From the NCBI RefSeq assembly GCF_014195655.1, contig NZ_JACICD010000003.1:372001-436000 (forward strand): a stretch of DNA of 64,000 nucleotides. Direction: 5' to 3'. Below the pieces are notes generated by a model. That model was not told the origin of the DNA. It saw only the letters and a list, made by a program, of their open reading frames with translations, and did not search any database. A program made the position numbers and the translations under genes. Positions 48,694 to 63,304 of the stretch are shown in pieces; the stretch's first letter is position 1; each line of letters starts with the position of its first letter. Origin of the DNA: Ancylobacter tetraedralis. Its GTDB lineage: Bacteria; Pseudomonadota; Alphaproteobacteria; Rhizobiales; Xanthobacteraceae.

Positions 48694-49776
48694 TCAGCCC
48701 TCCGCCTCGCCGCCGCCCTCTTCATCTCCCGGACCAGCCAGGATCTGCTCGGCGATGAGACCCGCATTCTGGCGGATCGCCGCCTCGATCCGTGCCGCTA
48801 GGTCCGGATTCTGGCGCAGGAAGGTCTTGGAGTTCTCACGCCCCTGACCGAGCCGCTGGCTGTCATGGGAGAACCAAGCACCTGACTTGTCCACCACCCC
48901 GGCCTTGACGCCGAGATCGAGCAATTCGCCCATCTTCGACACGCCCTCGCCATACATGATGTCGAACTCGACCTGCTTGAAGGGCGGCGCCAGCTTGTTC
49001 TTGACCACCTTCACGCGGGTCTGGTTGCCCACCACTTCCTCGCGCTCCTTGATCGAGCCGATACGGCGGATGTCGAGGCGGACCGAGGCGTAGAATTTCA
49101 ACGCATTGCCGCCCGTGGTAGTCTCCGGGCTGCCATACATCACCCCGATCTTCATGCGGATCTGGTTGATGAAGATGACCATGGTGTGCGAGCGATTGAT
49201 GGAGGCGGTCAGCTTGCGCAGAGCCTGGCTCATCAGCCGCGCCTGCATGCCGGGCTGGTTGTCGCCCATCTCGCCGTCGAGTTCGGCGCGCGGGGTCAGC
49301 GCCGCCACCGAATCGACCACCAGAACGTCCACCGCGCCCGAGCGCACCAGCGTGTCAGCAATCTCCAGCGCCTGTTCGCCGGCATCCGGCTGGGAGATCA
49401 GCAGATTGTCGAGATCGACCCCCAGCTTGCGGGCATAGATCGGGTCGAGCGCATGCTCGGCGTCGATGAAGGCGCAAACGCCGCCCTTTTTCTGGGCTTC
49501 CGCGATCGTATGCAGCGCCAGCGTGGTCTTGCCCGAGGATTCTGGCCCGAAAATTTCAACGACGCGGCCACGCGGCAGGCCGCCAATGCCGAGCGCGATG
49601 TCAAGACCGAGCGATCCGGTGGAGACCGTCTCGATCTCCATGATCTTGTCGTTCTTGCCAAGGCGCATGATCGAGCCCTTGCCAAAATGGCGCTCGATCT
49701 GGGTGAGAGCGGCGTCCAGCGCCTTGGTCTTGTCCATGGAAGATCCTTCGACGAGTCGCAACGTCGCCTGAGTCAT
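48694..49776 (-). CDS. recA: Recombinase A
   Basis: 360 aa strand-exchange ATPase and SOS coprotease. Walker [10 protein letters not shown] in [20 protein letters not shown], Walker [19 protein letters not shown], loop L2 [20 protein letters not shown], and an acidic C-terminus ending [13 protein letters not shown]. Start at 49776 follows GGGAG; an internal ATG at 49737 ([16 protein letters not shown]) is the start used in many relatives. An alphaproteobacterial SOS box lies 80 bp upstream, so RecA is damage-inducible through LexA. Confidence 0.97.
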
Positions 49777-49854
49777 TGCCGCGCTCCCGGTTGCATGCAA
49801 GTGGTTAATGAATCTTCGCCTGATCCTGCCAGCAACGTACTCGTTTTGTTCGAC

Positions 49855-49869
49855 GTTCGCAATATGTTC
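49855..49869 (-). promoter_or_regulatory. LexA/SOS box upstream of recA
   Basis: GTTC-GCAATAT-GTTC (GAAC-N7-GAAC on the coding strand), the alphaproteobacterial LexA recognition sequence, about 80 bp upstream of the recA start. Confidence 0.88.
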
Positions 49870-55931: not shown

Positions 55932-55999
55932 CCGGCGGCGGCTTCCCCGCCGTCCAAGCCCCGCCGATCGCTGGGCGTGCTCCCTTTTTTTGCTGATGG

Positions 56000-56014
56000 G
56001 AACGAGACGATAAC
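56000..56014. promoter_or_regulatory. Degenerate SOS-box-like site
   Basis: GAAC-GAGACGA-TAAC followed by AAGCGAG, resembling the intact boxes at 56641 and 63290 (both followed by AAGCG) with one base lost from the second half-site. Probably a decayed copy. Confidence 0.35.
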
Positions 56015-56036
56015 AAGCGAGCACCGGTTCTGGATG

Positions 56037-56303
56037 TGAACCGCCCCTAGATTCCTGGACGCCTTCTTCCCTAAATTTTGAGGCAAGGAGGCCCCGATGG
56101 GCAAAGCGAACTTCACCGAGGACTTCAAGCGCGACGCGGTCCTTCAGATCACCGAGCGGGGCTATCCGATTGCGGAGGTGGCGGCGCGGCTGGGGATCAG
56201 CAAGTACTCGCTCTACGAGTGGAGGAAACGGTACGGCAAGCCTGCCGCCGTGGCCCACGATGACGATCAGGCTGCCGAGGTCCGCCAGCTTAGGTTACCA
56301 TGA
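56037..56303 (+). mobile_element. IS3-family insertion sequence remnant (left end)
   Basis: Begins at TGAACCGCCCC (56037-56047), a typical IS3-family terminal repeat, followed by the start of OrfA at 56097: MGKANFTEDFKRDAVLQITE, RGYPIAEVAARLGISKYSLY, EWRKRYGKPAA. This is the HTH of an IS3 OrfA. The frame ends prematurely at 56303 soon after AAEVRQL, where a full OrfA would continue into a leucine zipper; OrfB and the right end are missing. A 5' fragment of an insertion sequence, not mobile. Confidence 0.78.
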
Positions 56304-56340: not shown

Positions 56341-56607
56341 CTACCCCACTTCTCCATGGCGATTGATCCACCGCGACGGACGCCCCCTCGGATAGCCCCA
56401 AGACGCGCCTCTACGGGCCTCGTCCACCCGCCGCCGCAACACAGCCTGCCCAAGCAGAAGGGCGCGTATGGTCGCCCTAGCGTCCCCTGCGCACGTCTCC
56501 AGCGCCTCGTCTATGGCCTCCTCGGGGACGGTGAAGGCGTCGCCCTCGGTGGATGATTCGGGTGCCTCAGGCGGGGCGGAAGGCTGGACGTGGGCGTTCA
56601 CAGGCAT
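56341..56607 (-). CDS. SOS-linked small companion protein, copy 1
   Basis: 88 aa, family not recognised. After a Pro/Glu-rich leader the core is AIDEALETCAGDARATIRAL, LLGQAVLRRRVDEARRG, then SWGYPRGRPSRW. It is clearly related to the protein at 63026-63250: both share I-D-x(2-3)-L-E-x-C-x-(G/D)-D-A-R-x-x-I-R-x-L and an Arg-Pro-rich C-terminus. Start ATG 56607 is preceded by GAGGAGAGCC. A GAAC-N7-GAAC SOS box lies 34 bp upstream, between this gene and the divergent SRAP gene. DNA-damage induction is expected; the molecular role is unknown. Confidence 0.65.
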   Translation of the reverse strand: MPVNAHVQPSAPPEAPESSTEGDAFTVPEEAIDEALETCAGDARATIRALLLGQAVLRRRVDEARRGASWGYPRGRPSRWINRHGEVG

Positions 56608-56640
56608 GGGCGGCTCTCCTCGTCCATCATCGAAACATGA

Positions 56641-56655
56641 GAACGAAGAGGGAAC
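56641..56655. promoter_or_regulatory. LexA/SOS box between small protein and SRAP gene
   Basis: GAAC-GAAGAGG-GAAC, the alphaproteobacterial SOS box, in a 110-bp divergent promoter region. It can control the small protein (34 bp away) and the SRAP gene (63 bp away). Confidence 0.78.
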
Positions 56656-56717
56656 AAGCGAGAACCCCGAGCCTTCCCCTGCTACGCTGCCGAGGACGCA
56701 GCGAGGGACCGGGAGCC

Positions 56718-57443
56718 ATGTGCGGACGCTACAGTCAGCAATATACGTGGGCAGAGGTGCACGCCTTCAGCCAGCCGCTCACGCTCACGGGTCCCGCCTC
56801 GAACCTCCAGCCGCATTACAACATCGCCCCTACCGAAATGGCCGGGGTGCTGGTTCCCCAAGCGGACGGCTCCCTGCGCTATGAGCGGATGCGCTGGCAA
56901 CTCGTGCCGCGCTGGTGGAAGAAAAGCCTCAAGGAGGTTCCCGCCACGTTCAACGCGCGAGCCGAGGAGGTAGCGGACAAGCCGATGTTCCGCGATGCCT
57001 TCCGCTCCCGCCGCTGCATCATCCCGGCGTCAGGTTTCTTTGAATGGAGCGGGCCGAAAGGGGATAGACAGCCTTGGTACATCACCGCCGCATCGGGCGA
57101 GTTGCTCGGCTTCGCGGGCCTCTATGACCGGTGGAGGAACCCCGAGACGGGCGAGGAGGTGCCGAGTTGCACCATCATCGTCACCACGGCGAACAGCTTC
57201 ATGGGGCAGATACACGACCGTATGCCGGTCATCCTCGACAGGGCGGACTGGCAGGCGTGGATTGAGGAGCCGCGCGAGGATTTGCTGAGGCCAGCCCCGG
57301 AGGGACCGTTGCGGCGCTGGAGGGTGACGCAGGCGATGAACAGCAGCCGCTACAAGGAGGCGGATGCGATTGAGCCGGTGGAGCCGGAAGGTGGATCGGC
57401 CAGTGCCAAGCGGGGGACCATAGCAACTTGCCAGGGTGATTAG
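56718..57443 (+). CDS. SRAP-domain DNA-protein crosslink protein (YedK/HMCES), copy 1
   Basis: 241 aa SOS-response-associated peptidase. It starts MCGRYSQQYTW, exposing the catalytic Cys2 after Met removal; Asn and Arg of the active site are in ATFNARAEEVADKPMFRDAF; the catalytic Glu is in IIPASGFFEWSGPKGDRQPW; the His is in IHDRMPVILDRADWQAWIEE. SRAP proteins form a covalent thiazolidine link with abasic sites in single-stranded DNA and protect them. GGGAG precedes the ATG. SOS box upstream, small companion gene divergent, tRNA-Glu about 180 bp downstream. Confidence 0.92.
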   Translation: MCGRYSQQYTWAEVHAFSQPLTLTGPASNLQPHYNIAPTEMAGVLVPQADGSLRYERMRWQLVPRWWKKSLKEVPATFNARAEEVADKPMFRDAFRSRRCIIPASGFFEWSGPKGDRQPWYITAASGELLGFAGLYDRWRNPETGEEVPSCTIIVTTANSFMGQIHDRMPVILDRADWQAWIEEPREDLLRPAPEGPLRRWRVTQAMNSSRYKEADAIEPVEPEGGSASAKRGTIATCQGD

Positions 57444-57522
57444 CAGCCCATTCGCTAGCGCCACACTGAGCTTCTTCAGGATCGGAGCCGCGCGGCTGAG
57501 TCGTCCTGCCACACCCCCCGCA

Positions 57523-57558
57523 TCCATTTGGGGTTCAATGCGGGGGTCCATTTGGGGT
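57523..57558. repeat. Two direct repeats near tRNA-Glu 3' end
   Basis: TCCATTTGGGGT at 57523-57534 and 57547-57558, 24 bp apart, followed by CCACCCCCAAAATTACG. Located 66-100 bp from the 3' end of tRNA-Glu; they could be arm-type sites of a lost integrase. Confidence 0.45.
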
Positions 57559-57623
57559 CCACCCCCAAAATTACGTCAGAGATTATTGAGTGATTTCAAA
57601 AACTTGCACATCGGCAAGCAGAC

Positions 57624-57698
57624 TGGCGCGCCCTAGGGGAGTCGAACCCCTCTCTCCACCGTGAAAGGGTGGCGTCCTAACCGATAGACGAAGGGCGC
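57624..57698 (-). tRNA. tRNA-Glu (TTC)
   Basis: Full cloverleaf on the minus strand: acceptor GCGCCCT/AGGGCGC, D arm GTCTATCGGTTAGGAC, anticodon loop CTTTCAC with TTC, T arm GGGGTTCGACTCCCC, and CCA encoded. Its 3' end faces the accessory region at 49.9-57.6 kb. Confidence 0.93.
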
Positions 57699-58176
57699 GC
57701 AGGCCGGGTTCTTATAGGCAAGCCGGCGGCGGTGCACAAGCGGTCCCTGCGCCCGTCATCCACAGGCTTGCGACGTCGCGTCCCTCATCCCGGCACCTAT
57801 CCGCTTGCGGCGGAATGCGAGTGTCATCCCGGCAAGATGTAGCAACGGGTGCGGCGACCCACGCTGGCCGGCCGCGAGACAAGCCCGGCCGCACTCGTGA
57901 TCTCCTGCTGCGGCGATGCGTGTTCGCGCGGGCAAGCGTCCCTCTTCGCAGTCCGGCATCCATACCGTGGCGAGACGACGCCGCGGTGAAGGGGTCCGGC
58001 AGGATCGAACACGGAAATGGCGCCCGACATAAACGGGCGCCTCGCGAGCCGTCCACCTGCCCGCCTGCCCGCCTGCCCGCCTGCCGCACCAGCCCGCGCT
58101 GGTGCGGCCCGACACTGTCCCCTTGCCCGGCGGGCACCCTGCCCGGCCCCGATCCGGGGCTATCGCTCCGGCGACC
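57699..58176. other. Non-coding region upstream of tRNA-Glu
   Basis: 478 bp with no supported gene. Holds a hairpin GGCGCCCG/CGGGCGCC (58019-58041) and a short tandem repeat of CCCGCCTG at about 58066-58085. TTATAG near 57711 could be part of the tRNA-Glu promoter. Confidence 0.45.
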
Positions 58177-58599
58177 TCACCATTTGCCGGTGTTCGGCAT
58201 GGAGGACCAAGGCTCCTGCGGGGGGCGGGCGCCGCCCTTCTGGAGCAGTTCGATCGAGATATTGTCCGGCGAGCGGACGAAGGCCATGTAGCCGTCGCGC
58301 GGCGGGCGGTTGATGGTCACGCCGCCGTCCTGCAGCTTCTGGCAGGTGGCATAGATATCGTCGACCTCATAGGCGAGATGGCCGAAATTGCGGCCTTCGC
58401 CATAGGGTTCCGGATCCCAGTTATAGGTGAGCTCCAGCTCGGCGACGCCCTTCTGGCCCGGCGCGGCGAGGAAGACCAGCGTGTAGCGCCCCTGCGGCAC
58501 CTCCTTGCGCCGCACCTCCTCGAGGCCCAGCTTGTTGACGTAGAAATCCAGCGAAGCATCGATGTCGGTGACGCGAACCATGGTGTGAAGGTACTTCAT
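58177..58599 (-). CDS. gloA: Lactoylglutathione lyase (glyoxalase I)
   Basis: 140 aa VOC-fold metalloenzyme that isomerises the methylglyoxal-glutathione adduct. Expected metal ligands are visible: His5 ([10 protein letters not shown]), Glu56 ([20 protein letters not shown]), His74 ([10 protein letters not shown]) and Glu117 ([10 protein letters not shown]). Full length. Divergent from the sirtuin gene across 74 bp. Confidence 0.95.
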
Positions 58600-58673
58600 G
58601 GGTCCTCTTGGAGCGGTCTTCTTGGGGGCTTGTCGCGGCGCCGACGGCGCCGGTGACGATAGTGGCTGAAGAT

Positions 58674-59444
58674 ATGACGATGGACGATGACATCAAGGCA
58701 GCATGCACCGAACTCGGCGCAATCCTCGCCGGCATGCGGCGCGGCGTCGCCTTCACCGGAGCCGGCCTGTCGACCGAAAGCGGCATTCCCGATTTCCGCT
58801 CGCCGGGCGGGCTGTGGACGCGCAACAAGCCCATCGACTATGGCGCCTTCCTGTCGGACCGGGCGATGCGCCGCGAGGCCTGGCGTCGCCGCTTCGCCAT
58901 GGAGGAGGCTTTCGCCGGCGCGGCGCCCGGGCGCGGCCACCGCCGGCTGGCACAATGGCTGGCGGGTGGTCAGCTGGCCGGCATCGTCACGCAGAACATA
59001 GACGGCCTGCACCAGGCCTCGGGTGTGCCGGACGAGCGTCTGGTGGAACTGCACGGCAACACGACCTATGCCACCTGCCTCGACTGCGGCGAACGCTATG
59101 AGCTCGACTGGGTGCGCCAGCGCTTCGAGGCGCACGCGCTCGCGGTGCCCGACTGCCTCGACTGCGGCGGCCCCATAAAGACCGCCACCATCTCCTTCGG
59201 CCAGCCCATGCCGAGGACGGCCATGGTGCGCGCGCACGAGCTGACGCGCGCCTGCGACGTGTTCCTCGCCATCGGCTCCTCGCTGGTGGTCTGGCCCGCC
59301 GCGGGCTTTCCCGTCGAGGCCAAGCGGCACGGCGCCACGCTGGTGATCATCAACCGCGAGCCGACCGAGTTCGACGAAATCGCCGATCTCGTGATCCACG
59401 CCGATATCGGCGACGTGCTCGACGCGGCCGCCGAAACGAAATGA
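58674..59444 (+). CDS. Sir2-family NAD-dependent protein deacylase
   Basis: 256 aa class sirtuin. Motifs: [20 protein letters not shown] (NAD-binding), [20 protein letters not shown] with catalytic His in ELHGN, a zinc site of two CxxC pairs ([10 protein letters not shown] and [10 protein letters not shown]), and [20 protein letters not shown]. It removes acetyl or acyl groups from lysines, making nicotinamide. The start at MTMDDDIK is chosen; an in-frame 22-residue extension from 58608 is possible. Like alphaproteobacterial CobB-type sirtuins. Confidence 0.92.
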
Positions 59445-59694
59445 GCGCGCGTGCGGATGACGCGCCATGCAGGGCACCGCGAGGCCGCCGTGCCCGCCCG
59501 CTTTCCCCACCTGATGCCGGGAAGCCACTTGACGCAACTGCCGTGCGCGAACCGAATCAATTTGGGTGTTTTCGTGGCGTCTTCGGGTGCTATGCTTTGC
59601 GAGAGTAGAATCATGAAACGCTGGCAGGACGGGCGCTGGCAGCATGGGCGCCGGCTGGATAGCGGTGCCCGGCGTTCGCGGGGGTGAGTGGCCG

Positions 59695-60297
59695 ATGGTG
59701 TCGGACGGTACGGTGCCACGACATGGCGCAGGCGAGCGTCGTTCGCTTGAAGACGAGGCGGATGCCACCGGCACAGGCGAGGGTCCGCTCGTCCAGATCG
59801 CCGGCACCATCAAATGGTTCGACCTTTCCAAGGGCTATGGTTTCGTCGTGCCGGATAATGGCGGCGGCGACGTTCTGCTGCATGTCACCTGCCTGCGGCG
59901 TGGCGGCTTTACCACGGCGCAGGAGGGCGCGCGGGTGGTGTGCGAGGTGGTCGCCCGTGACCGCGGCTTCCAGGCGCTGCGCGTGATTTCGATGGACGCC
60001 TCCACTGCCCTGCATCACAGCCAGCTGCCGCAGGCGCGCACCCATGTCACGGTGCAGCCGGTCGGCGGCTTTGAACGGGCCTGGGTCAAGTGGTTCAACC
60101 GCCTGCGCGGCTTCGGCTTCCTGTCGCGCGGCGAGGGCACCGAGGACATTTTCGTCCATATGGAGACGCTCCGGCGCCACGGCCTCACTGAGCTGCGCCC
60201 CGGCCAGATGGTACTGGTGCGCTTCGGGCCCGGACCCAAGGGGCTGATGGCGGCCGAGGTGCGGCCCGACGGGGCCTCGACGCCCTCCTCGCACTAG
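59695..60297 (+). CDS. Double cold-shock-domain protein
   Basis: 200 aa with two cold-shock domains: residues ~36-100 (AGTIKWFDLSKGYGFVVPDN, with RNP1-like KGYGFV) and ~130-195 (AWVKWFNRLRGFGFLSRGEG, RNP2-like DIFVHMETLRRHGL). This long two-domain CspA form is typical of alphaproteobacteria and binds single-stranded nucleic acid. Start at 59695 follows GGGGGTGAG. A DUF192 gene is downstream, the usual alphaproteobacterial neighbour. Confidence 0.9.
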   Translation: MVSDGTVPRHGAGERRSLEDEADATGTGEGPLVQIAGTIKWFDLSKGYGFVVPDNGGGDVLLHVTCLRRGGFTTAQEGARVVCEVVARDRGFQALRVISMDASTALHHSQLPQARTHVTVQPVGGFERAWVKWFNRLRGFGFLSRGEGTEDIFVHMETLRRHGLTELRPGQMVLVRFGPGPKGLMAAEVRPDGASTPSSH

Positions 60298-60448
60298 CGC
60301 ATAATTCGGTCGGCTCAAGCGTGCCGGCCATCGCCACCGGGCTTGAGCCCTCGCGGCCAGTGCTTTGTCCAGCCGGGTGAGCCCGCGCGAGGCAAGGCGG
60401 CATTGGGCTCCATAGCATCAAGGGAAGGCGCCCGGCGCCCGGTTCCAT

Positions 60449-61000
60449 ATGAGTTTTTCTGCTTCTCCGGCCGCGCCTTACCCGGCGGCCCTTGCCTCGC
60501 CCCTGCCCGCCTCAATCCATGTGCCACCTGCTGCCCGGCCATCATCGCCGGCGTGGTTCATGGGCATGCTGGCACTCATTTTCGCGCTGATTCTCCTCGT
60601 CCATCCGGCCATGAGCGCGGTGTTCGAGCCGCTGACGATCCAGACCAAAAAGGGCCCGGTGGCCTTCACCGTCGAGATGGCGACCACCCCGGCGGAGCGC
60701 GCCAAGGGGCTGATGTACCGCACGGAACTGGCGCCGAATGCCGGCATGCTGTTCGATTTCGGCGTCGAGCAGCCGATCTACATGTGGATGAAGAACACCT
60801 ATATCCCGCTCGACATGGTGTTCATCCGCGCCGATGGGCGGATCGCCAGCATTGCCGAGAACACCACGCCGCTCTCGACGCAGACCATCGAATCCGGCGG
60901 TTCGGTCAAGGCGGTGCTGGAACTGGCCGGCGGCACGGCCAAGGCGCGGGGCCTCGCGGTCGGCGACCAGGTCGTCCACCCCCTCTTCGCGCCGAAGTAA
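60449..61000 (+). CDS. DUF192 family exported protein
   Basis: 183 aa, possibly starting later at ATG 60559 or 60565, which would leave a simple N-terminal signal anchor (MLALIFALILLVHPAMSAVF). The DUF192 domain (residues ~60-180) has TVEMATTPAERAKGLMYRTE, MLFDFGVEQPIYMWMKNTYI and PLDMVFIRADGRIASIAENT, all diagnostic. It should be periplasmic or membrane-attached. The function of DUF192 is not known. Between the cold-shock gene and tRNA-Pro. Confidence 0.88.
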   Translation: MSFSASPAAPYPAALASPLPASIHVPPAARPSSPAWFMGMLALIFALILLVHPAMSAVFEPLTIQTKKGPVAFTVEMATTPAERAKGLMYRTELAPNAGMLFDFGVEQPIYMWMKNTYIPLDMVFIRADGRIASIAENTTPLSTQTIESGGSVKAVLELAGGTAKARGLAVGDQVVHPLFAPK

Positions 61001-61110
61001 CGTGGCCCTGTAACCGCAGTCTGTTGACCGCCGCGCGTCAGCCGCGGCTTGACGCGGCACGCGGCGGATGCGATGCCGCAGGACACGTGCTTTGGCACAT
61101 GTTCGGGTTT

Positions 61111-61187
61111 CGGGGCATAGCGCAGTCCGGTAGCGCGGGAGTTTTGGGAACTTCAGGTCGCAGGTTCGAATCCTGCTGCCCCGACCA
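61111..61187 (+). tRNA. tRNA-Pro (TGG)
   Basis: 77-nt cloverleaf: acceptor CGGGGCA/TGCCCCG, anticodon loop TTTTGGGAA with TGG, T arm CAGGTTCGAATCCTG, CCA encoded. Confidence 0.93.
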
Positions 61188-61493
61188 CCCACCTTGATGG
61201 CCGAGCCGACGAGTTGCGCGCCCCCAGCCCGGCCCGGCCGACCGCCGGAAGCCCCTCTTTGGCAAGCCGGATCCCCTGTGAGCATTGGACGAGCCGCCGC
61301 GTTGCGCGCGCCCGACGCCCGATGGGCGCGATGCCCGCTTGCCAGAACGCGACCCTCGTCTTAAGCAATCTTCAGGTAGCCGTCTGGGGCGCCGCCGGAT
61401 CGCGTGTAAGGGTTTTCAGAGGCTCGCGGCGCGCCGAGCCTCGGCCATCCGCAAGGCGAGGCAGCCCGTGCGCCGGGCAAGGGAGCGAGTTGA
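61188..61493. other. Non-coding region tRNA-Pro to NDUFS4-like gene
   Basis: 306 bp with no supported gene. The end carries the purine-rich GGGAGCGAGTTGA before the NDUFS4-like ATG. Confidence 0.45.
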
Positions 61494-61799
61494 ATGGTTG
61501 CACGCATCTACAAGCCGACCCGCAACGCCATGCAGTCCGGCACGGCCAAGACCAAGCTCTGGGTGCTCGACTACGAGCCCGAGGCGCCGCGTCAGGTCGA
61601 GCCTCTGATGGGCTATACCAGTTCGTCGGACATGAAGAGCCAGCTTCGCCTGCGCTTCGAGACCAAGGAAGAAGCGATCGCCTATGCCGAGCGGCATGGG
61701 ATTGCCTACCAGGTGCAGGAGCCGAAGGAGCCGGTGCGCCGCCGCATCGCCTATTCCGACAATTTCAGCTTCCGCCGCCAGGGGCAATGGACCCACTGA
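61494..61799 (+). CDS. NDUFS4-like ETC complex I subunit
   Basis: 101 aa protein of the ETC_C1_NDUFA4/NDUFS4 family, an alphaproteobacterial accessory subunit of NADH:quinone oxidoreductase shared with mitochondria. Motifs: VARIYKPTRNAMQSGTAKTK, WVLDYEPEAPRQVEPLMGYT, QLRLRFETKEEAIAYAERHG and the C-terminal YSDNFSFRRQGQWTH. It lies between tRNA-Pro and tRNA-Arg, the usual location. Confidence 0.93.
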   Translation: MVARIYKPTRNAMQSGTAKTKLWVLDYEPEAPRQVEPLMGYTSSSDMKSQLRLRFETKEEAIAYAERHGIAYQVQEPKEPVRRRIAYSDNFSFRRQGQWTH

Positions 61800-61860
61800 G
61801 CCACCCCGAGGGCGCCTGCTCCCTCGCAACGACGTGCCGCCTGCCGCGCGGCGCGTTTCA

Positions 61861-61937
61861 GGCCGCGTAGCTCAGCTGGATAGAGCAGCCGCCTTCTAAG
61901 CGGCAGGTCGCTGGTTCGAGCCCAGCCGCGGTCGCCA
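61861..61937 (+). tRNA. tRNA-Arg (TCT)
   Basis: 77-nt cloverleaf: acceptor GGCCGCG/CGCGGTC, D arm GCTCAGCTGGATAGAGC, anticodon loop CTTCTAA with TCT, T arm CTGGTTCGAGCCCAG, CCA encoded. Its 3' end faces the accessory stretch from 61.95 kb to the window edge. Confidence 0.93.
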
Positions 61938-62072
61938 GTTTTATCGCGTGGCATCAGTCACTTAAGATGATGCCCTGATGCTATCTATTGAGAACAGAAG
62001 AAGCACATTTTGGCCGCTGTGGCGGCGTTCGTGACAATAAGTCCCGAGATAGTCCCGAGCAGGACGCGCCGC

Positions 62073-62726
62073 ATGTGCAACCTCTACAGCCACCATTCGA
62101 ACATCCAGGCGATCACCGATTTGGTCGGCACGCTGCGCAACGGCGCCGGCAACCTCGCCCCGCAATCGGGCATCTATCCCGACTATCCCGCCCCCATTGT
62201 GCGGACGGGAACGGATGGCGAGCGGGAGATCGTCATGGCGCGCTGGGGCATGCCGTCGCCGGCCTTCGCGCTTGAGGGCAAGAAGACCGACAAGGGCGTC
62301 ACCAATATCCGCAACACCTCCTCGCCGCACTGGCGGCGCTGGCTCGGCATCGAGCACCGGTGTCTTGTGCCCTTCACGAGCTTTTCCGAGCCGCCGGCGG
62401 GGGCAAAAGGGCCGGAGACGTGGAAGTGGTTTGCGCTCTCGGCCGAAGAGCCCCTCGCCTTCTTCGCTGGGCTCTGGACGGCCTGGACCAGCGTCCGGAA
62501 GCTCAAGGAAGGCCCGGTGACGGCGGATCTCTACGGCTTCCTAACCACCGAGCCAAACGCCGTCGTCGGCGCCGTGCATGGAAAGGCCATGCCGGTGATT
62601 CTCACCACGGCCGAGGAGCGCGAGGCCTGGCTGCGGGCGCCGTGGAGCGAGGCCAAGGCGCTGCAGCGGCCTCTGTCCGATGATGCCGTGGCGGTAGTCG
62701 AAAGGCCGATCGACGCGACAGGTTAA
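62073..62726 (+). CDS. SRAP-domain protein (YedK/HMCES), copy 2
   Basis: 217 aa and divergent from copy 1. The start at 62073 after GAGCAGGACG gives [12 protein letters not shown] with the catalytic Cys2. The Asn/Arg loop is [17 protein letters not shown], Glu is in [20 protein letters not shown], and His is in [20 protein letters not shown]. All catalytic residues are present, although FFEW is replaced by SFSE. It covalently protects abasic sites. First gene after tRNA-Arg; its TAA shares bases with the TAA of the convergent small protein gene. No SOS box directly upstream. Confidence 0.9.
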
Positions 62727-63016
62727 CTTGCCTTGCCGCCCTTGACGACGACAAAGGCGCGCATGGGCTCATCGGGCGGACGGCGTGGCGGCCAGTCCAG
62801 CAGGCGCGCGCGGCAGCCCCGCCGATAGGGGTGCGTTTCCCGCCGGTGGTAGCAATCGGATGATAGCTGCTTGATCAGCTCATCGAGGTCGATCTCGGGA
62901 CCGTAGCACGCCGCCAGCCGCGCGAGCTTGTATACGCCATATCGTTCGCAGCGCTCGCAATGCACGCGCACGGTGACATAAGGAAAATCCGACAGCCTCG
63001 AGCCTGCGTCGGACAC
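62723..63016 (-). CDS. Small zinc-ribbon-like protein
   Basis: 97 aa. It has a CxxC pair ([20 protein letters not shown]) and later cysteines ([20 protein letters not shown]), a pattern like small zinc-ribbon proteins common in Hyphomicrobiales mobile regions. It is just downstream of the companion protein on the same strand, so it is probably in the same SOS-controlled unit. Its stop overlaps that of the convergent SRAP gene in a shared TTAA. Function unknown. Confidence 0.65.
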
Positions 63017-63025
63017 CGCCCGCCC

Positions 63026-63250
63026 CTATGCCGCCCGTGGTGCCGGCCGGGCGCGGATGAATCCACGCGACGCCGCGCGAATAGCGGTCGAGCGCAGCCG
63101 GGCCATCTCGTCCTGCAGCTTGACGTTGGACATGATCAGCACCCGAATTGCCTCGCGCGCGTCGTCACCACACAGCTCCAGCATGATGTCGATATCCGCG
63201 TCACTGGCGACAAACGGTACAGGTTCAGCAGATGGCTGCGCACTCGTCAT
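63026..63250 (-). CDS. SOS-linked small companion protein, copy 2
   Basis: 74 aa protein; the start at 63250 follows GAGGAG at 7-bp spacing. The core (DIDIMLELCGDDAREAIRVL, IMSNVKLQDEMARLRSTAI, ASRGFIRARPAPRAA) is homologous to the 56341-56607 protein. The helix after DDAR could be a short coiled coil. A GAAC-N7-GAAC SOS box is 40 bp upstream. The zinc-ribbon gene is immediately downstream and an SRAP gene is convergent. No known function. Confidence 0.7.
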   Translation of the reverse strand: MTSAQPSAEPVPFVASDADIDIMLELCGDDAREAIRVLIMSNVKLQDEMARLRSTAIRAASRGFIRARPAPRAA

Positions 63251-63289
63251 GGGCATCTCCTCGCGTGGCTGGCCGGATTGATTCCATGA

Positions 63290-63304
63290 GAACAAACTGA
63301 GAAC
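63290..63304 (-). promoter_or_regulatory. LexA/SOS box upstream of companion gene copy 2
   Basis: GAAC-AAACTGA-GAAC, an alphaproteobacterial SOS box, 40 bp upstream of the 74-aa gene start. GAACAAGCG on its right side is identical to copy 1. Confidence 0.78.

What the first reader, a model, noticed from the sequence alone, without database searches (positions are those of the whole stretch)
56341..63304. Two SOS-controlled units pairing an SRAP protein with the same small companion protein
The sequence shows two SRAP genes (56718-57443, 62073-62726), each next to a small protein gene (88 aa at 56341, 74 aa at 63026). The two small proteins are homologous (ID-x-x-L-E-x-C-x-D-A-R-x-x-I-R-x-L). 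Both have an exact GAAC-N7-GAAC SOS box 34-40 bp upstream, and both boxes are followed by AAGCG. SRAP proteins crosslink abasic sites; a damage-induced partner of this kind is not described to my knowledge. Each unit sits at the 3' side of a tRNA gene, where integrases usually sit.
Basis: partly seen in the sequence, partly recalled or inferred. Interest (0 to 1): 0.75.

Follow-up and report, generated by a model that had tools for sequence, protein, structure and literature searches.

The report
Mobile DNA-damage-switch-controlled small protein family
A family of small, uncharacterised proteins in soil bacteria related to rhizobia appears to be switched on by the DNA-damage alarm and often sits beside, but is not tied to, genes for a protein that grips damaged DNA, making it a new candidate player in DNA repair.

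Summary
The window carries two SRAP genes, each near a homologous small gene with an exact alphaproteobacterial SOS box upstream; recA (in this window) and lexA carry the same kind of box.

The small protein is an unnamed family found in 36 of 297 genomes of the order; of 289 class-wide genomes only the window's own matched. Of 125 copies examined, 85 have an exact SOS box within 250 bp upstream (control 0.8%). An SRAP gene lies within 2 kb of 33 of 125, far above chance, in several layouts. But 92 of 125 have no SRAP that near, and 60 of those still have the box. It is thus a LexA-regulon family that repeatedly settles beside SRAP, in a few loci beside Ku, not a dedicated SRAP partner.

Only unit 1's SRAP shares the box. 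Unit 2's companion heads a likely operon with a 97-aa Cys-rich protein and converges on its SRAP. All 23 copies within 2.5 kb of a tRNA lie on its 3' side, as expected of island cargo. No significant Pfam, NCBIfam, PHROG or solved-fold match was found. A second SOS-box small family ('TYY') turned up. Function is inferred, not shown.

The parts
56341..56607 (-). companion 1, 88 aa small protein predicted helical
   Evidence: family member; RBS-like GAGGAG before the ATG
56641..56655 (.). SOS box GAACGAAGAGGGAAC, between companion 1 and the divergent SRAP1
   Evidence: 33 bases from companion start, 62 bases from SRAP1 start
56718..57443 (+). SRAP1, canonical SRAP (MCGRYS...)
   Evidence: PF02586 E 2.5e-63
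56097..56303 (+). transposase HTH fragment next to the cut 3' end of unit 1
   Evidence: PF01527 E 1.5e-12; relative L097 aligns at 94% only over 56355-57383 and has a P0007-like gene behind its companion
57624..57698 (-). tRNA-Glu; unit 1 on its 3' side
61861..61937 (+). tRNA-Arg; unit 2 on its 3' side
61992..62006 (+). one-mismatch SOS-like site before SRAP2, probably chance
62073..62726 (+). SRAP2, divergent SRAP subfamily (MCNLYS...)
   Evidence: PF02586 E 1.9e-22
62723..63016 (-). 97-aa Cys-rich, zinc-ribbon-like protein (by eye; GTG start), likely second gene of the companion 2 operon, tail-to-tail with SRAP2
   Evidence: 9 nt behind companion 2; tblastn relative behind the companion in L122, similar ORFs behind the companion in L122, L128, L133; no significant family match
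63026..63250 (-). companion 2, 74 aa
63290..63304 (.). SOS box GAACAAACTGAGAAC of companion 2
   Evidence: 39 bases from start
49855..49869 (-). SOS box of recA (positive control within the window)
   Evidence: recA 48694-49800(-)

Best explanation
The companion belongs to an undescribed, LexA-repressed small-protein family of Hyphomicrobiales. It behaves as mobile cargo, in about a fifth of the copies close to the 3' end of a tRNA gene. On DNA damage RecA-stimulated LexA cleavage frees the promoter (inferred from the box); the companion is made together with variable small partners: SRAP from the same box in unit 1, a Cys-rich 97-aa protein behind it in unit 2, P0007-like, TYY or zinc-ribbon-like proteins elsewhere. 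The protein is predicted as a short helix, a GGD turn, a long helix with coiled-coil character (so probably a dimer) and a basic tail S-x-G-Y-x-R-G-R. Most likely role: an adaptor or accessory factor that brings damage-tolerance proteins (SRAP at abasic sites, in a few other genomes Ku or a DnaE2-like polymerase) to damaged DNA, with SRAP a frequent but not obligatory client. Shown by computation: family, boxes, layouts, neighbours, tRNA-3' position. Inferred: induction, dimer, DNA contact, mobility, adaptor role. I put about 0.9 on LexA control, 0.75 on mobile cargo and 0.35 on the adaptor role.
For: Exact box in 85 of 125 copies against 0.8% of control windows; recA and lexA of the same genome carry it. 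Two promoter designs hold the box in opposite orientations (46 GTTC-type, overlapping the likely -35; 39 GAAC-type, often behind a TTGACT). SRAP within 2 kb of 33 of 125: divergent 15, convergent 11, same-strand downstream 6, other 1; a Mesorhizobium plasmid has SOS box - companion-like gene - companion - P0007 - SRAP on one strand. Both SRAP subfamilies are involved (ORF clusters of 25 and 8 loci, identified by their positions). Other repair neighbours: Ku in 3 loci (L083, L146, L147), LigD in 3, two of them SRAP-linked, a DNA polymerase III alpha (DnaE2-like by eye) hit in 1 of 95 neighbour proteins, probably L113. tRNA: 23 of 23 on the 3' side. Model: helices 29-38 and 43-68; the best profile match in the PDB is a designed coiled coil (whole-sequence E 0.0093, single stretches 19 or worse).
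Against: No expression or binding data. 40 of 125 copies lack an exact box, 33 of these 40 also any one-mismatch box within 160 bp. Of the 25 neighbour families shown for SRAP-less copies (of 104 found) only Ku and the polymerase are repair genes, so the adaptor role rests on a minority of loci. The model is of middling confidence (pLDDT 70.5, pTM 0.38) and has no PDB fold match. Phage integrase domains were found in only 2 of 88 proteins from loci near a tRNA, and 9.7% of control positions in the same loci are also within 2.5 kb of a tRNA, against 23 of 125 copies. The three Ku loci are close relatives (Ku 83-87% identical). Having SRAP near does not go with having the box (independent-pairs test, median p 1).
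Confidence: 0.55

Rival explanations
1. Dedicated SRAP partner: the companion binds SRAP and controls its crosslinking or autoprocessing; SRAP-less copies act in trans on an SRAP elsewhere in the genome.
For: SRAP link far above chance, at least 5 gains or losses forced on the tree; shared divergent box (8 of the 11 SRAPs with an exact box) and a co-directional gene row on a Mesorhizobium plasmid; SRAP is present in 91 of 101 relatives, so a trans partner is usually available.
Against: 92 of 125 copies have no SRAP within 2 kb; G001 and G029 have the companion but no SRAP match (a search that missed one of the three SRAPs that one search found in G000); at least 53 of the 101 relatives have SRAP without a companion match (91 with SRAP, 38 with companion).
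Confidence: 0.15
2. SOS-induced growth or division brake (or another effector of the host) that moves on islands, with SRAP as mere fellow cargo.
For: Small, SOS-boxed, multi-copy, highly variable partners, tRNA-3' position. SOS-induced small division inhibitors exist in Caulobacter (SidA, DidA; recalled, not read here).
Against: SRAP recurs as neighbour, Ku and a polymerase in a few loci; predicted soluble helices and a basic tail rather than a membrane segment (sequence by eye).
Confidence: 0.2
3. Element-protecting factor: the companion and its partners serve the mobile element (damage-timed excision, transfer or silencing of the host response).
For: tRNA-3' position in 23 of 23; plasmid copies within 4 kb of psiB or of a recombinase gene; a protein identical to the own genome's third copy is encoded on an IMG/VR viral contig.
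Against: No match of P0001 in 50,697 phage records, hits on only 6 viral contigs over five scans; integrase domains in 2 of 88 proteins scanned nearby.
Confidence: 0.15
4. Clustering without shared function: SRAP and companion are both SOS-type genes of islands and merely end up side by side. (Not exclusive of the other rivals.)
For: Varied layouts; unit 2's SRAP lacks an exact box of its own; TYY, another SOS-box family, is also a frequent neighbour.
Against: The Mesorhizobium gene row and the shared divergent boxes probably tie expression together.
Confidence: 0.25

Closest known systems
SRAP / YedK / HMCES gene neighbourhoods (Aravind, Anand and Iyer 2013, PMC3765255)
   Same: SRAP beside SOS genes; SRAP-Ku neighbourhoods with two Zn-ribbon-like small domains are described there (abstract, passages and part 1 of the Findings section read)
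   Different: The parts read name no helical small protein of this kind; here the companion has its own SOS box and mostly lives without SRAP nearby.
Alphaproteobacterial LexA regulon (GTTC-N7-GTTC box)
   Same: box sequence and its presence at recA and lexA; motif stated in PMC3323433 and PMC8565304 (passages read)
   Different: Companion and TYY proteins have no significant match in Pfam, NCBIfam, PHROGs or PADLOC (of TYY P0004 in Pfam and P0006 in the other three); I recognised no paper on them in the listings
Small SOS-induced proteins such as SidA and DidA of Caulobacter, DdrR of Acinetobacter (recalled)
   Same: short, LexA-type or damage-controlled, lineage-restricted
   Different: no sequence comparison was made; target and mechanism unknown here
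AAA+ clamp-loader lid (RFC small subunit, AAA_assoc_2) and UBA-like helices
   Same: helix-GGD-x-R-x-x-I-x-A-L pattern, weak profile hits (E 0.33-0.76 for RFC chains, 0.08-0.11 for AAA_assoc_2)
   Different: hits are below significance and the predicted fold is a hairpin with a long second helix; no fold match

Membership tests
SRAP (PF02586), both window genes | Pfam SRAP domain over curated cut-off | tested here: met
   213.9 and 80.3 bits against 27.1
SRAP (PF02586), both window genes | Cys at position 2 plus conserved Asn, Glu and His | tested here: met
   by eye on the translations, no alignment made: MC..., FNARAEE/TNIRN, FFEW/FSEP, IHDRMP/VHGKAMP; residue roles from PMC3765255
SRAP (PF02586), both window genes | crosslinks abasic sites | not testable with these tools
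   needs biochemistry
LexA regulon (companion 1 and 2) | GTTC-N7-GTTC box in the promoter, shared with recA and lexA of the genome | tested here: met
LexA regulon (companion 1 and 2) | LexA binding and damage induction | not testable with these tools
   needs EMSA and expression data
LexA regulon (SRAP2) | own exact box | tested here: not met
   only a one-mismatch site, absent in L089, L090, L092, L102
dedicated SRAP partner | companion found only or mainly with SRAP | tested here: not met
   33 of 125 within 2 kb, 92 not
dedicated SRAP partner | association above chance | tested here: met
   13 of 59 within 5 kb against about 0.3% expected each
known protein family (Pfam, NCBIfam, PHROGs, PADLOC) | significant profile match of the companion | tested here: not met
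   best E 0.043, under every cut-off
AAA+ lid or UBA-like domain | significant profile or fold match | tested here: not met
   E 0.08 or worse; no Foldseek match
cargo of tRNA-integrating islands | position at the 3' side of tRNA genes | tested here: met
   23 of 23 of the copies within 2.5 kb of a tRNA; the other 102 of 125 have no tRNA that near
cargo of tRNA-integrating islands | integrase and flanking direct repeats | tested here: inconclusive
   integrase domain in 2 of 88 neighbour proteins; no tRNA-end repeat recognised among the families listed around the two units (13 of 13, and the 20 shown of 27)

The most novel reading that the evidence does not exclude
Hyphomicrobiales own a pool of undescribed LexA-controlled small proteins (the companion family and the TYY family, with variable zinc-ribbon partners) that travel to tRNA 3' ends and plug into abasic-site protection (SRAP), end joining (Ku) and mutagenic synthesis (DnaE2) alike: a shared, exchangeable SOS adaptor kit, whose helix-GGD-helix core may imitate the lid of clamp loaders.
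Probability: 0.25. Interest if true: 0.8.

Novelty: new variant of a known kind. Interest (0 to 1): 0.55.

Why it matters
SRAP proteins protect abasic sites across bacteria and eukaryotes, yet their bacterial partners are poorly known. A multi-copy, SOS-boxed small-protein family repeatedly found beside SRAP, and in a few loci beside Ku or a DnaE2-like polymerase, gives testable candidates, and suggests that part of the alphaproteobacterial SOS response is mobile and exchanged between genomes.

Tried and rejected
A strict SRAP partner: rejected as the general role, because most copies have no SRAP near. A UBA fold: suggested by the GIP1_N hit and weak hits to two chains that I recall as UBA domains (1wj7 and TNK1), but the model shows a hairpin with one long helix and no fold match. 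AAA+ lid: the profile scored 17.5 bits on the RFC segment against at most 3.1 in 60 column shuffles, but that segment was picked as one of the best PDB hits, so the control is biased; kept only as a lead. Phage origin: no match in the phage collection and hits on 6 viral contigs (none). SOS control of SRAP2: not supported. Other recurrent neighbour families: of the clusters shown, most of the large ones I read as antisense frames or conserved synteny in related genomes, apart from SRAP and the small partners. Direct repeats at the tRNA ends: none recognised.

Rows left out: 5 of the 75 places were not fetched; the 61 places down to E 3e-9 of 76 were used. 7 of 132 companion hits in the fetched loci (E above 1e-8; 3 of them with a box) were dropped before the counts of 125. 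Some loci are near-copies (L081 and L108 are the same plasmid region), so counts are not independent; nor are the 23 tRNA cases. In one search two of the SRAP rows (a second piece of a G068 gene and a below-cut-off G048 row) were left out and the third SRAP of G000 was added. In one search only 95 of 192 listed neighbour proteins were given, and 88 of 149 (one of 150 had been dropped for length); 24 loci, mostly in conserved synteny, were skipped by hand before the list. Searches show only the first 25 of 104 and 96 families. The first look scored at most 19 candidates per genome, so 36 of 297 is a lower bound. The TYY check covers 20 of the 36 places.
Full report
Setting. The window is G000:C3:372001-436000 of a 5.0-Mb draft genome. 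Same-genus handle G011 matches Ancylobacter pratisalsi by the identical plasmid place, and 8 of 11 named relatives are Ancylobacter (Xanthobacteraceae, Hyphomicrobiales by the lineage).

Check of the observation. The AAGCG is probably not a separate signal: read on the companion strand it is CGCTTGTTC, and CTTGTTC is the usual start of the 46 GTTC-type boxes, where it looks like the -35 element. Box counts in one window are weak evidence, but one of the four boxes belongs to recA, and lexA elsewhere in the genome has one too. GTTC-N7-GTTC is the published alphaproteobacterial LexA motif (passages of PMC3323433 and PMC8565304).

The family. The two companions and a third copy at G000:C4:413412-413633 are the clear members in this genome. 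The third has an SOS box 37 bases before its start and no SRAP: the genome's three SRAP hits are C3:428718, C3:434073 and C2:536186. Profile A1 finds the family in 38 of 101 relatives at E 1e-3, profile A2 in 36 of 297 genomes of the order at E 1e-6, and in the class sample of 289 genomes only in the window's own genome. No significant match was found in Pfam, NCBIfam, PHROGs or PADLOC.

SOS control. I fetched stretches around the copies and 6 annotated plasmid regions; 128 loci were used. Of 125 companion ORFs at E 1e-8 or better, 85 have an exact box within 250 bp upstream; 178 of 22,003 random windows of the same loci do. The median distance from box to the start codon I chose is 33 bases. 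Boxes come in both orientations inside two different promoter designs, which suggests that LexA control has been kept or regained rather than simply inherited. Of the 40 without an exact box, 10 end in LH or LLN, most of them one chromosomal subfamily. SOS box and SRAP are not coupled: 25 of 33 SRAP-near and 60 of 92 other copies have the box.

SRAP link. In the 101 relatives 13 of 59 companions (E 1e-9), or 14 of 76 (E 1e-3), lie within 5 kb of one of 136 SRAPs; about 0.3% would be expected per copy. In the wider set 33 of 125 have SRAP within 2 kb and 36 within 5 kb; of the 33, 15 are divergent, 11 convergent, 6 downstream on the same strand and 1 other. The tree needs 19 changes of this label, 5 or more forced by supported branches; shuffles need 29 on average and none of 500 as few as 19, so the label is partly inherited as well as repeatedly gained or lost. 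The tree rests on few columns. In the Mesorhizobium plasmid region L084 an SOS box is followed on one strand by a companion-like gene, a companion, the 121-aa P0007 and SRAP. SRAP genes of these loci have an exact box of their own within 250 bp in 11 of 34 cases; in 8 of the 11 it is the box of the divergent companion.

Partners. The gene behind the companion varies: P0007-like (12 loci by clustering, 5 by tblastn at 1e-6), TYY (10 by clustering, 24 of 128 loci anywhere in the stretch by tblastn), and several Cys-rich families including the window's 97-aa protein. In unit 1 this place is lost: relative L097 aligns at 94% only over 56355-57383 and has a P0007-like gene behind its companion, where the window has other DNA with a transposase fragment. 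TYY proved to be an SOS-box family of its own: 36 places in 26 of 297 genomes, and 16 of 20 places examined, none with a companion detected in the 2-kb stretch, have an exact box upstream, one of them in this genome. Ku is the repair gene seen most often beside SRAP-less copies (3 of 95 neighbour proteins; L083, L146, L147); a DNA polymerase III alpha family hit appears once, probably a DnaE2-like gene in L113. Aravind and colleagues described SRAP with Ku and two Zn-ribbon domains (PMC3765255, Findings section part 1 and passages read), which fits this network.

Mobility. 23 of 125 companions lie within 2.5 kb of a tRNA gene (426 of 4,371 control positions in the same loci, 9.7%, do), all 23 on its 3' side, beside ten kinds of tRNA; some of the 23 are near-copies. 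That is the side where tRNA-targeting elements insert (general knowledge). Phage integrase domains occur in 2 of 88 proteins scanned from these loci, so many may be old remnants. A protein identical to the genome's third copy is encoded on an IMG/VR viral contig.

Structure. AlphaFold2 with 13 sequences gives helices 29-38 and 43-68 and a weak third, 79-84 (pLDDT 70.5, pTM 0.38). Foldseek finds nothing in the PDB. A 66-row profile hits a designed coiled coil best (whole-sequence E 0.0093, single stretches 19 or worse), then an RFC small subunit (0.33) and, at about 1, two chains that I recall as UBA domains. I read this as a helical hairpin whose long helix probably pairs with another copy, followed by a basic tail; that is inference.

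Verdict. The companion is better described as a probably mobile LexA-regulon family with SRAP as a frequent neighbour. A function in damage tolerance is likely, the adaptor mechanism is a hypothesis. That I know of nothing in print on it rests on the listings of searches of an open-access library only.

Noticed in passing
L229-L248; G000:C1:771490-771717: TYY family (about 82 aa, TYYVALPF...): 16 of 20 copies without a detected companion have an exact SOS box upstream; one of them (L242) has an SRAP in the stretch; no significant match in the family libraries searched.
   Followed up: partly
48694-49869: recA with its SOS box lies in the same window, about 6.5 kb from unit 1.
   Followed up: yes
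55996-56025: 30-nt stretch 77% identical to the unit 1 promoter region (56637-56666), with a decayed box: possible relic of a further SOS promoter.
   Followed up: no
L125, L126: The ORF directly behind the companion looks like a second companion-like helix fused to a Cys-rich domain.
   Followed up: no
L084 5741-5953: A second, distant companion-like gene (HMM E 1e-4) stands first behind the SOS box of the Mesorhizobium companion - P0007 - SRAP gene row; psiB and a gene annotated 'type VI secretion protein ImpB' lie within 4 kb.
   Followed up: partly
L136, L138, L169, L170, L173-L175, L181, L182: A chromosomal subfamily of genus g24 and one relative, ending in LH or a similar pair, without exact SOS box and with conserved synteny.
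   Followed up: no
63638 to beyond 64000 (L018 13639-16472, 18247-19110): A large ATPase-like ORF and an ORF with a ParA/MinD-like motif follow unit 2, then an endolysin-like gene (all by eye); possible mobile element remnant.
   Followed up: no
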